Below are positions 10,061-16,387 of a stretch of 64,000 nucleotides of DNA, one piece after another (position 1 is the stretch's first letter; the number at the start of each line of letters is the position of its first letter). A model generated the notes under the pieces. That model was not told the origin of the DNA. It made no database searches and was given only the letters and a program-made list of their open reading frames with translations. This DNA is from Allobosea sp. Leaf344 (lineage in GTDB: Bacteria > Pseudomonadota > Alphaproteobacteria > Rhizobiales > Beijerinckiaceae). The translations under genes were made by a program, and so were the position numbers. The stretch lies in assembly GCF_001426225.1 (NCBI RefSeq), contig NZ_LMRT01000001.1, forward strand, positions 723,090 through 787,089, written 5' to 3'.

Positions 10061-13000
10061 TCAGCGATGGAGCCACATCCGCAGCGACGTCAGCAGCTGT
10101 TCGGTGTTCACCGGCTTGGCCAGATAATCCGAGGCCCCCGCCTGCAGGCATTTCTCGCGGTCGCCCTTCATCGCCTTGGCGGTCAGCGCGACGATCGGAA
10201 GCCGCCGCAGGGCGGGGTTGGAGCGGATGACCTGCATCGTCTCGTAGCCGTCCATGCCGGGCATCATGATGTCCATCAGCACGATCGCGATATCGGGCTG
10301 CGCGTTGATCACCGCGATCGCCTCGCTCCCGGTGGTCGCCGTGAGCACTTTCATGCCCCGTCTTTCGAGAACGCTGCTGAGCGCGAAGATGTTGCGCGCG
10401 TCGTCATCGACCAGGAGCACGATCTCGCCGACCAGATCCTCGTCGGAACTGCGCAGCCGCTCCAGCATCGCCTGCTTGTGCGCCGGCAGATCGGCGACGA
10501 CGCGGTGCAGGAACAGGGCGGTCTCGTCGAGCAGCCGCTCCGGCGATTCCACGCCCTTGACCACGACGCTGCGGGCCATGCTGTGCAGCCGCATATCCTC
10601 CTCGGGCGAGAGTTCGCGGCCGGTGAAGACGACGATCGGCACCTCGCTGAGGCTGGCGTCGTCGCGCACCTGTTCCAGCACCTCGAAGCCGCTCATATCC
10701 GGCAGCCTGAGATCGAGGACGACGCAGTCGATCGGCTCGGAGCGCAGCACGGACAGCGCCTCGGTGCCGCTGCCGACCGGGATGATGTCGATGTCGTCAT
10801 GGCCCAGCAGCTCGGTGACGCCGAGCTGCTCGCCCTCATTGTCCTCGACCAGCAGCAGGCGCTTGCGCCGCGGCTCGGCGAAGCCCTTGAGCCGGTTGAA
10901 GGCGCGCGTCAGCCCGTCCGCCGTGGTCGGCTTGTTCAGGAAGGAGAAGGCGCCGCGCGCCAGCCCGTGCTGGCGGTCCTCGTCCAGCGTGACGATCTGC
11001 ACCGGGATATGGCGCGTCGCCGGGTCCTGCTTGAGCTGGCTGAGCACGGTCCAGCCGAGCATGTCGGGCAGGAAGATGTCGAGCGAGACGGCGGTCGGGC
11101 GGAATTCGCGCGCCAGCGTCAGCGCATCGGCGCCGCGCCCGGCGACCAGCACCTTGAAGCCGTTCGCCCGCGCCAGATCGACCAGCACATTGGCGTAATG
11201 CGGGTCGTCCTCGACGATCAGCAGGCTGGTGTCGTCGGGGGTGATCGACTGCCGGTCATCCGGCACCGTCTCGGTCACGCGGTCGCTGGAGCGCGCGTGG
11301 CCGGTGCCCTTGGCGACGTTGGCCCCGGTCTCCGCCTTGTGTTCCAGCTGCGGCATCGACCCCGGCATCGAGCCGACGAAGGTCAGCGGCAGATAGAGGG
11401 TGAAGGTGCTGCCGACGCCGGGGGTGCTGCGCAGCTGGATTTCGCCGCCGAGCAGGCTCGCCAATTCGCGGCTGATCGCGAGGCCGAGGCCGGTGCCGCC
11501 ATATTTGCGGCTGGTCGAGGCGTCGGCCTGCTGGAACGCCTCGAAGATGATGCGCTGCTTCTCGGGCGGGATGCCGATGCCGGTATCGGTGACCTCGAAG
11601 GCGACCACGGAGGGCGCGTTGCGCAGCGAGGGGTGATCGCTGCTCCAGCCCGATTTCACCGGTGCGACCTTCAGCGTCACGCCGCCCTGCTGCGTGAATT
11701 TGAAGGCGTTGGACAAAAGGTTCTTGAGGACCTGCTGCAGGCGCTTGGAATCGGTGATGATGCTGCGCTCGAGATCGGGCGAGACCTCCACCGAGAAGGC
11801 GAGCTTGCGGTTTTCCGCCTCGTGCCGGAACGGCCGCGCCATCACATCCATCAGATTGGCGAAGAAGATCTCCTCCGCATCGACCGAGACCGTGCCCGAT
11901 TCGATCTTCGACAGGTCGAGGATGTCGCTGATCAGATTGAGCAGATCGGTGCCGGCGCCGTGGATGGTCCGCGCGAATTCGACCTGCCTGGCCGTCAGAT
12001 TGCCCTCGGGGTTCTCGCCGAGCTGCTGGCCGAGGATCAGGATCGAGTTCAGCGGCGTCCGCAGCTCGTGGGACATATTGGCCAGGAATTCGGATTTGTA
12101 CTTGGACGTGAGCGCGAGCTCGGTCGCCTTCTCCTCGAGCGCGCGGCGGGCCTGCTCGATCTCCTGGTTCTTGGCTTCCACCTCGACATTGCGCTCGGCG
12201 AGCTGTTGCGCCTTCTGCTCGAGCTGCTCGTTGGTCTGCTGCAATTCGCGCTGCTGCGTCTGCAGCTCCCCGGCGAGCTGCTGGGATTGTTTGAGCAGGC
12301 CTTCCGTCTGCATCGTCGCTTCGATCGAGTTCAGCACGATGCCGATCGAGGTGGTCAGCTGGTCGAGGAAGGCCAGCTGCAGATCGGTGAAGTTGCGCAG
12401 CGAATCGAGCTCGATGACCGCCTTGACCTGGCCCTCGGAGAGCACCGGCAGCACGATCGCGCTCAGCGGCCGCGCCTTGAATACGCCGGAGGTGATCGGC
12501 GTCACGTTCTTCGGGATGTCGGTGAGCAGGATGCGGCGGGCATCCCTGGCGCATTCGCCGATCAGCCCCTCGCCGATGCGCAGCCGCTCCGGATGGCCGC
12601 GGGTCGGGTGATGGGCATAGGAGGAGAGCAGCTGCAGCGTCGCGGTCTCGCCATCGACCTGGTAGATCACGCCGTGCTGAGCATCGACGAGCGGGGCGAG
12701 CTCCGAGAGCAGCATGCGCGCGACCGTCGTCAGGTCGCGCTGGCCCTGCAGCATGTTGGTGAAGCGCGCGAGATTGGTCTTCAGCCAGTCCTGATCGGTG
12801 TTGCGCTCGGTGGTCAGGCGCAGATTGCCGATCATCGTGTTGATGTTGTCCTTCAGCTCGGCCACCTCGCCGCGCGCCTCGACCTGGATCGAGCGGGTCA
12901 GATCGCCCTTGGTCACCGCGGTAGCGACCTCGGCGATGGCGCGGACCTGGGTGGTGAGGTTGGCGGCCAGCAGGTTGACGTTGCCGGTCAGGTCCTTCCA

Positions 13001-16000: not shown

Positions 16001-16387
16001 CCAGAGCAGATCGTCGATCAGCCCGTTGACCGATTGCTCCATATCCGCCCAGGAGCCGTCGGAGAGGCCGAAGCGGACGCGGTTACGGGTCTTGCCGTCG
16101 CGGCCGACGACCTGCCCGACCTGCTCCAGCTGCTGGGCCATGCGCTGGTTGGCCGAGACGATGTCGTTGAAGGTATCGGCGATCTTGCCGGCCAGCCCCG
16201 TCTGGTCGCCCCGCAGCCGCACGTCGAAATCGCCGCGCCGCATCGCCTGCAGCGCGTCGAGCAGCTCGTTCACGTCGAGAGGCGTCTCATCCCCGGCCAT
16301 CGCATCGGTGGGGGGAGAGGAAGGGATTCCGTCGCGCGCAGCCTTGCCGCGGCCGGATCTGCCGGCCGTCACCTCGGTGTTTGCCAT
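10061..16387 (-). CDS. Giant poly-HAMP hybrid histidine kinase (11 HAMP-type repeats, GAF, kinase, three receivers)
   Basis: This 2108-residue protein has no signal peptide and no membrane segment, so it should be soluble. After an N-terminal region with a divergent HAMP-like unit, residues 183-1194 are exactly eleven 92-residue repeats. Each contains [42 protein letters not shown] and [14 protein letters not shown] domain follows (about 1215-1360), then a coiled coil (about 1360-1430), HisKA with H1440 in NMSHELRTP, and HATPase ([17 protein letters not shown], to about 1670). Three receivers follow with acceptors near D1770, D1892 and D2039. The repeat type is that of fungal group III kinases such as Nik1/Os-1, which carry about five to six such units and sense osmotic stress. 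Bacterial homologues exist, but the input signal is unknown. It is the first gene of an operon with the hybrid kinase downstream. Confidence 0.93.
12806..15841 (-). repeat. Eleven tandem 276-base repeats encoding the poly-HAMP array
   Basis: The coding DNA is eleven in-phase 276-base units with no length change between units. Units 2-10 are most alike; units 1 and 11 are more diverged, as expected for the ends of an array that grew by internal duplication. Many differences between units are synonymous, which limits but does not remove the scope for recombination between copies. Confidence 0.92.

What the first reader, a model, noticed from the sequence alone, without database searches (positions are those of the whole stretch)
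10061..16387. Kinase with eleven identical-length HAMP-type repeats, about double the fungal Nik1 class
Residues 183-1194 are eleven 92-residue units without a single length change, in a protein without membrane helices. Fungal group III kinases with about five to six such units sense osmotic stress and are targets of fungicides. Here the array is twice as long, is linked to a GAF domain and drives three receivers. The end units are the most diverged, as expected of growth by internal duplication. How a signal passes through about 1000 residues of HAMP units in a soluble protein is open.
Basis: partly seen in the sequence, partly recalled or inferred. Interest (0 to 1): 0.72.

Follow-up and report, generated by a model that had tools for sequence, protein, structure and literature searches.

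The report
Soluble poly-HAMP sensor kinase and neighbours
This soil bacterium carries a long rod-like sensor kinase of a type that turns out to be widespread, and beside it lies a little-known trio of genes, two of them small membrane proteins, that may be how the soluble kinase receives its signal.

Summary
In detail: eleven 92-residue units without a length change (residues 183-1194), a GAF domain, a histidine kinase with intact motifs and three receivers, no membrane helix. The array is not exceptional. With its diverged N-terminal unit it counts 12 units, the commonest length among relatives (33 of 66 complete genes; 8 of 18 in a second set). Characterised kin exist: AskA/AskB of Myxococcus and OsaA of Streptomyces; the N-terminal part of a close homologue is solved (9trk). 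"Growth by internal duplication" fits only the middle units: the N-terminal unit and the last two keep their identity across phyla. Two neighbours suggest a mechanism. First, a gene that begins with a similar receiver follows directly in 56 of 72 loci (the AskB-AskC arrangement). Second, on the divergent side lies a cassette, winged helix + DUF5985 type A + DUF5985 type B (small, about three membrane helices each). DUF5985 is rare: above cut-off in 7 of 396 Pseudomonadota genomes, all 7 among the 26 that carry the array. I propose that the DUF5985 pair is a membrane input for the kinase in lineages that have it; 19 of those 26 genomes lack it. The signal is unproven.

The parts
10061..16387 (-). 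poly-HAMP / GAF / HisKA / HATPase / three-receiver hybrid histidine kinase, 2108 aa
15842..16276 (-). N-terminal region: residues 38-85 and diverged unit 0 (residues 86-182, 97-residue step); residues 17-316 match the solved 9trk chain
13358..15841 (-). units 1-9 of the array (residues 183-1010), near-identical HAMP-type units
12806..13357 (-). units 10-11 (residues 1011-1194), C-terminal adapter units that keep their position across phyla
12332..12742 (-). GAF domain (residues 1216-1352)
11381..12097 (-). HisKA (H1440 in SHELRTPLN) and HATPase_c with N- and G-box-like motifs (motif names recalled)
10082..11155 (-). three receiver domains; phospho-acceptor aspartates D1770, D1892, D2039 assigned by motif
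8373..10046 (-). downstream partner: receiver (res 6-118) + HisKA + HATPase_c + second receiver, 557 aa; start chosen at ATG 10046, 14 nt after the kinase stop
16554..16913 (+). winged-helix-like protein, 119 aa, first gene of the divergent cassette; no Pfam family over cut-off
16915..17184 (+). DUF5985 (PF19447) type A, 89 aa, about three hydrophobic stretches
17159..17464 (+). DUF5985 (PF19447) type B, 101 aa as listed (true start may lie later), three long helices predicted (pLDDT 82)

Best explanation
It is a cytosolic hybrid sensor kinase of the bacterial poly-HAMP/GAF family (AskA/AskB and OsaA type). Inferred working: two chains pair into a long parallel rod of HAMP units; an input at the specialised N-terminal unit, or along the rod, flips the chain; the two C-terminal adapter units and the GAF domain pass the change to the histidine kinase, which autophosphorylates and feeds its own receivers and the conserved N-terminal receiver of the next gene, whose kinase module carries the signal on. 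In this lineage the divergently encoded DUF5985 pair is the likely membrane input and the winged-helix protein a local regulator. The most likely signal is an osmotic or envelope stress. Shown here: domains, conserved operon partner, fixed ends and variable middle, strong constraint on the array, DUF5985 linkage. Inferred: dimeric rod, phosphotransfer route, membrane input, signal.
For: Domains and catalytic motifs present. A close homologue is solved as a histidine kinase-Gcn4p fusion (9trk_A, 387 bits over residues 17-316), consistent with a parallel coiled-coil design. A receiver-first gene lies directly downstream in 56 of 72 loci with room for one (window included), upstream in 3, neither in 13, and in 17 of 17 with room in a second set of 18; it is the best match to the window's partner receiver in its locus in 56 of 56; what follows the receiver varies among the ten scanned: HisKA, HWE, PAS, GAF. 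In M. xanthus AskC lies immediately downstream of AskB, binds it, and AskA Rec3 interacts with the AskC receiver in a two-hybrid test (PMC7643160, passages). Array dN/dS about 0.013 against 0.14 for the part after the array, window versus same-genus G027; array dN is the lower one in all 8 pairs compared. DUF5985: 7 of 7 genomes over cut-off carry the array among 396 (Fisher 2e-9); 11 of 12 over both samples; the window's own genome is one of these.
Against: No signal is known for this protein. DUF5985 is missing from 17 of 30 array-bearing genomes tried by locus, among them all four cyanobacterial, four Bacteroidota and two Rhizobium ones in that list, so it cannot be a general input; in 5 of those 30 (all Oxalobacteraceae) it lies outside the fetched flanks. 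One DUF5985 genome lacks the kinase (G192). Five weaker DUF5985 matches under the cut-off occur in the phylum sample, four of them in genomes without the array. The samples hold related genomes, so the Fisher value is too small. The osmotic reading rests on relatives and on trehalose genes next door in one Rhizobium clade; the window's own treZ is on another contig. In an Embleya relative the next gene shows no similar receiver. The AlphaFold model of the array is poor (pLDDT 51). Receivers are common, so linkage alone does not prove phosphotransfer.
Confidence: 0.7

Rival explanations
1. The array itself is the sensor: cytosolic conditions such as ionic strength, crowding or a small molecule act directly on the HAMP chain, and the membrane genes are bystanders or separate outputs.
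For: Deleting HAMP repeats of fungal group III kinases changes activity and fungicide response (PMC3848655, passages). 19 of 26 array-bearing genomes of the phylum sample lack DUF5985 over its cut-off. Strong purifying selection on the array itself.
Against: Does not explain why DUF5985 pairs occur almost only with these kinases, nor why linked rows are scattered over the kinase tree (at least 11 changes for 13 linked rows of 76).
Confidence: 0.4
2. The GAF domain binds the ligand and the poly-HAMP rod is a tuner, spacer or scaffold that sets kinase bias or cell position.
For: GAF is present in the window protein and in the Embleya and Deinococcus relatives scanned; unit number varies from 7 to 15 among unsplit relatives, so exact length is not critical.
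Against: The array is more constrained than the kinase part, and its ends are position-specific across phyla, which a mere spacer would not need.
Confidence: 0.25
3. Adaptation-type system: in other lineages the kinase is methylated, since CheR sits next to it there.
For: CheR is the next gene (within 300 nt, same strand) in 10 of 94 loci, none of which has a receiver gene directly downstream; CheB follows in two; Deinococcus plasmid: kinase-CheR-receiver kinase.
Against: No CheR or CheB was found this way beside the window kinase or in the alphaproteobacterial loci (BLAST with one query each); no methylation motif was tested.
Confidence: 0.15

Closest known systems
AskA / AskB with AskC, Myxococcus xanthus (PMC7643160, passages)
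   Same: Soluble hybrid kinase with extended poly-HAMP region and several receivers; askC, a receiver-bearing kinase, directly downstream of askB.
   Different: Ask kinases are tied to ambruticin, glycerol and development; no DUF5985 partner is mentioned in the passages I read; the authors say they found no Sln1-like membrane osmosensor. I did not have the Ask sequences.
OsaA / OsaB, Streptomyces coelicolor (PMC9739842, passages)
   Same: Very large cytosolic hybrid kinase (1829 aa) with more than ten HAMP domains, next to its response regulator.
   Different: Described with a REC domain; OsaB ends in a coiled coil, whereas the window's partner ends in a kinase and a receiver. I did not have the OsaA sequence.
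Azospirillum orphan hybrid kinases AZOLI_p30171 and AZL_c01470 (PMC4618731, passages)
   Same: Nine tandem HAMP domains with GAF reported in a hybrid kinase.
   Different: Named only in a survey; no function given in the passages read.
Fungal group III hybrid kinases (Nik1, TcsC, Bos1)
   Same: 92-residue HAMP pairs in a soluble hybrid kinase.
   Different: Five to six repeats and a receiver domain in the passages read; the window has eleven, GAF, three receivers and an operon partner. No fungal sequence was compared.
PDB 9trk / 9trj, 'histidine kinase,Gcn4p'
   Same: Residues 17-316 align, including the N-terminal unit.
   Different: Truncated fusion; source organism and paper not seen.
Pseudomonas aeruginosa Aer2 poly-HAMP (3LNR)
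   Same: Chained HAMP domains in a soluble receptor; among the best Foldseek hits of my model, though weak.
   Different: Three plus two HAMP domains around a haem PAS, chemoreceptor output (PMC3570549, passages).

Membership tests
Bacterial poly-HAMP/GAF hybrid kinase (Ask/OsaA type) | tandem HAMP-type units, no membrane helix | tested here: met
Bacterial poly-HAMP/GAF hybrid kinase (Ask/OsaA type) | HisKA-HATPase-receivers after the array | tested here: met
Bacterial poly-HAMP/GAF hybrid kinase (Ask/OsaA type) | receiver-bearing partner gene directly downstream (AskB-AskC) | tested here: met
   window 8373-10046; AskC
Bacterial poly-HAMP/GAF hybrid kinase (Ask/OsaA type) | sequence kinship to AskA, AskB or OsaA themselves | not tested
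   their sequences were not at hand; kinship is inferred from described architecture
Bacterial poly-HAMP/GAF hybrid kinase (Ask/OsaA type) | response to ambruticin, glycerol or osmotic stress | not testable with these tools
   needs a mutant
Fungal group III (Nik1) kinase | five to six HAMP-pair repeats | tested here: not met
   eleven plus one; fungal number
Fungal group III (Nik1) kinase | feeds the fungal Ypd1/HOG phosphorelay | not tested
   the host is a bacterium, genus inferred as Bosea; works like Nik1 in outline only
Poly-HAMP chain as in Aer2 | contiguous HAMP domains forming a continuous dimeric helical stack | tested here: inconclusive
   weak Foldseek match (E 0.35, probability 0.94) from a low-confidence single-chain model; sequence match to 9trk
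DUF5985 (PF19447) | profile match over the curated cut-off | tested here: met
   90.8 and 81.5 bits against 27.3

The most novel reading that the evidence does not exclude
The winged-helix + DUF5985-A + DUF5985-B cassette is a dedicated accessory of poly-HAMP kinases: the two three-helix membrane proteins dock on the specialised N-terminal unit and turn a soluble HAMP rod into a membrane-coupled (turgor or envelope) sensor, a two-part receptor.
Probability: 0.4. Interest if true: 0.75.

Novelty: new variant of a known kind. Interest (0 to 1): 0.55.

Why it matters
Group III-type kinases are a fungicide target and a puzzle, because a soluble HAMP chain has no obvious sensor. The bacterial family is wide enough to compare: fixed end units, exchangeable middle, a conserved output receiver and, in some lineages, a rare membrane cassette that keeps company with the kinase. 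If the cassette is the input, the question of where a soluble poly-HAMP kinase gets its signal becomes testable in harmless soil bacteria with two gene deletions and a two-hybrid test. It also gives a functional lead for DUF5985, for which one full-text search of the held library found no paper.

Tried and rejected
Unusual array length: rejected. Chance repeat: rejected. Spread as phage cargo: no phage record matched; 167 plasmid records do, 111 of them Rhizobium. Strain-level change of unit number: of eleven plasmid loci examined from Rhizobium and Ensifer (counted), seven unbroken Rhizobium genes have 12 units, one Ensifer gene has 11, and three are broken into pieces (sequencing error not excluded) and were counted in pieces only. 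HAMP halves compared by profile: only the 13 overlapping residues aligned, so homology of the two halves is not shown by sequence. AlphaFold of the N-terminal 458 residues was poor. Foldseek of DUF5985-B gave nothing meaningful. No Rfam match in 7800-19500; no promoter-like site, and terminator-like sites no more than in shuffles (4 against 5.2). No NCBIfam model passed its cut-off among the 25 shown of 148 for the kinase and of 127 for the partner. Trehalose linkage as a general osmotic clue: rejected, seen in one Rhizobium clade only. HTH domains reported in Ask kinases: the SpoIIID and HTH_6 profiles hit the HAMP units here, with no unit passing alone, so I treat them as look-alikes here. 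Two-unit superperiod: offset 2 exceeds offset 1 in 60 of 78 arrays, but rows are related and the mean effect is small (1.5 points). My class-sample Fisher value assumed which array-positive genomes were in that sample, so I do not use it; 11 changes for 13 linked rows lies close to the shuffled mean of 12.4, so linkage is scattered rather than clade-bound; it could mean repeated gain, repeated loss, or both.

Full report
Observation. The gene at 16387-10061 (minus) encodes 2108 residues. Direct-repeat search finds 11 copies at an exact 276-nt step; self-identity at 92 residues is 0.795. Pfam gives 11 HAMP stretches, GAF, HisKA, HATPase_c and three receivers. Catalytic motifs are present (H1440; D1770, D1892, D2039, assigned by motif). 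There is no membrane helix by hydropathy. An extra diverged unit precedes the eleven, with a 97-residue step.

Identity of the host. The same-genus locus L011 and the named locus L019 (Bosea sp. Tri-44) share an identical 1500-base stretch, so the genus is inferred to be Bosea. Among 61 genomes, full or near-full relatives occur in G000, G007 (split over two contigs) and G027 of 37 genomes of the genus and in G059 of the order.

How common is it? This set is biased towards the window's unit 4. Of 66 complete frames of at least 1300 aa (window and G027 included) the unit numbers, N-terminal unit included, are 12 in 33, 10 in 9, 7 in 8, 13 in 4, 14 in 3, 9 in 3, 4 in 2, 5 in 2, 11 in 1, 15 in 1; the 4s and 5s are pieces of split genes (L035, L041, L070, L077). 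A second set (16 of the 18 other array genomes of a class sample, plus G027 and G059, which repeat earlier loci) gives 12 in 8, 10 in 7, and 11, 9, 8 once each. The array is present in 19 of 290 genomes of the class and 26 of 396 of the phylum, the window's genome counted in both. 167 PLSDB plasmids carry it, 111 named Rhizobium.

Shape of the array. Between the window and Bosea or R. leguminosarum relatives the units are one-to-one orthologous (98-99% on the diagonal against 84% off it); in Bradyrhizobium and others the diagonal is still about 92 against 84, with a few units matching off it. In 32 arrays from other phyla or classes the ends keep position: last unit 82% to the same position against 61% to middle units, last but one 79 against 68, N-terminal unit 49 against 23 (this last contrast is inflated, since the comparison is ungapped over its five-residue insertion); the third from the end shows no such difference (84 against 83); middle units are 84.5% to the window's middle and 89.3% among themselves. 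So the array reads as cap, exchangeable middle, two adapters. Between window and G027 the array has dN 0.0067 at dS 0.52, the part after it dN 0.11 at dS 0.79; over all eight pairs compared array dN is 0.007-0.071 and kinase-part dN 0.11-0.20, and one further locus was not comparable for length. On a tree of 77 kinase parts unit number needs at least 25 changes, shuffled mean 36.

Structure. Residues 17-316 match a PDB pair, 9trk and 9trj, called histidine kinase,Gcn4p. My AlphaFold model is poor (pLDDT 51) but gives ten helices with two connectors per unit; its best Foldseek hit is an Aer2 poly-HAMP entry, E 0.35, with two more Aer2 entries at ranks 3 and 4 and none under E 0.001.

Output partner. 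The next gene (8373-10046) is receiver-HisKA-HATPase-receiver. I took loci with a kinase piece of at least 1300 aa and dropped L011, L019 and L072 as cut by the contig end: 73 rows, two of which (L012, L016) are pieces of one gene and one of which is the window. One lacks room; of the other 72, 56 have a gene starting with a similar receiver (BLAST E 1e-3) within -150 to +400 nt downstream, 3 have one just upstream, 13 neither. In the second set it is 17 of 17 with room, one cut. The modules behind the receiver vary (ten scanned). In Embleya the next gene is ANTAR-SpoIIE with no similar receiver. In ten of 94 loci CheR is the next gene, in two followed by CheB. The published counterpart is AskB-AskC: adjacency and binding, and a Rec3-receiver contact seen for AskA and AskC (PMC7643160, passages).

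The membrane cassette. Divergent from the kinase lie a 119-aa protein and two DUF5985 proteins. A profile of the first hits ArsR-type winged helices (HlyU, E 7e-5), while no Pfam family passes its cut-off for the window's copy. The DUF5985 proteins form two subtypes, A and B; B folds as three helices at pLDDT 82. These are the only two DUF5985 matches in the whole genome. The order winged helix, A, B on one strand holds in every complete case listed; L173 lies at a contig end, and L143, L198 and L200 show the winged helix at the end of the fetched piece (lengths). Of 94 loci, 13 show a DUF5985 pair in their flanks and one a single weak match (L010 and L150 are the same gene); G128 and G198 have the pair just outside the fetched piece, about 2 kb past the kinase. 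Linked loci come from Alphaproteobacteria, one other Pseudomonadota genome (G489), Polyangium, Prosthecobacter and an acidobacterium.

Is the linkage more than chance? In 396 phylum genomes DUF5985 passes its cut-off in 7, all 7 among the 26 with the array, Fisher 2.3e-9; related genomes are among them, so the value is too small, and five weaker matches under the cut-off include four genomes without the array. In a class sample it passes in 6 of 143, 5 of them array-positive. Together 12 positive genomes, the window's included, 11 with the array, and in 8 of these 11 the pair lies beside the kinase or just past its partner (G000, G103, G128, G198, G302, G489, G543, G612; places); it is on another contig in G439 and G519, and 2.2 Mb away in G071. 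The reverse does not hold: 19 of 26 array genomes of the phylum lack it, and of 30 array genomes tried by locus, 8 of which I chose because they were linked, 13 have it, each with 2 or 4 matches. The other five positives are all Oxalobacteraceae. It is absent from the four cyanobacterial, four Bacteroidota and two Rhizobium genomes in that list. A full-text search for DUF5985 found no paper.

Signal. Osmotic or envelope stress is my best guess from OsaA/B (PMC9739842, passages), the glycerol response of Ask kinases and fungal group III kinases (PMC11253588, passages; PMC3848655, passages). In eight Rhizobium-type loci the operon is followed by treZ and malQ (in L159 the first is annotated as a glucan-branching enzyme, in L154 a toxin-antitoxin pair lies between), but only in that clade among the loci searched; the window's treZ is elsewhere.

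Verdict. The new part is the rare DUF5985 cassette that keeps company with these kinases, a candidate for the missing input.

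Noticed in passing
window 17508-19478 (-): Chemoreceptor-type protein (MCPsignal) on the kinase's strand, beyond the cassette; similar genes in three other loci.
   Followed up: partly
window 19700-21001 (-) and 21454-22959 (-): Two further PAS/HWE- or HisKA_2-type histidine kinases close by, a cluster of signalling genes.
   Followed up: no
L153 12193-13023; L055, L088 and others: CheR, in two loci with CheB, beside poly-HAMP kinases: a possible methylation-adaptation branch of this family.
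   Followed up: partly
P0001, HAMP units: Pfam SpoIIID passes its whole-protein cut-off (47 against 27 bits) only by summing weak hits over the repeats; the DNA-binding domains reported in AskA/AskB may have the same origin.
   Followed up: partly
L154, L159, L160, L164: In Rhizobium plasmids the kinase-partner pair is followed by trehalose-type genes treZ and malQ.
   Followed up: partly
L156, L162, L163, L033, L041: Array genes broken into several frames in some records; sequencing error or decay not told apart.
   Followed up: no
L085 15761-19435: Next to a Chlorogloeopsis poly-HAMP kinase lies a CHASE3-HAMP-GAF-HisKA-HATPase-three-receiver kinase: same C-terminal chassis with an ordinary membrane sensor.
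   Followed up: no
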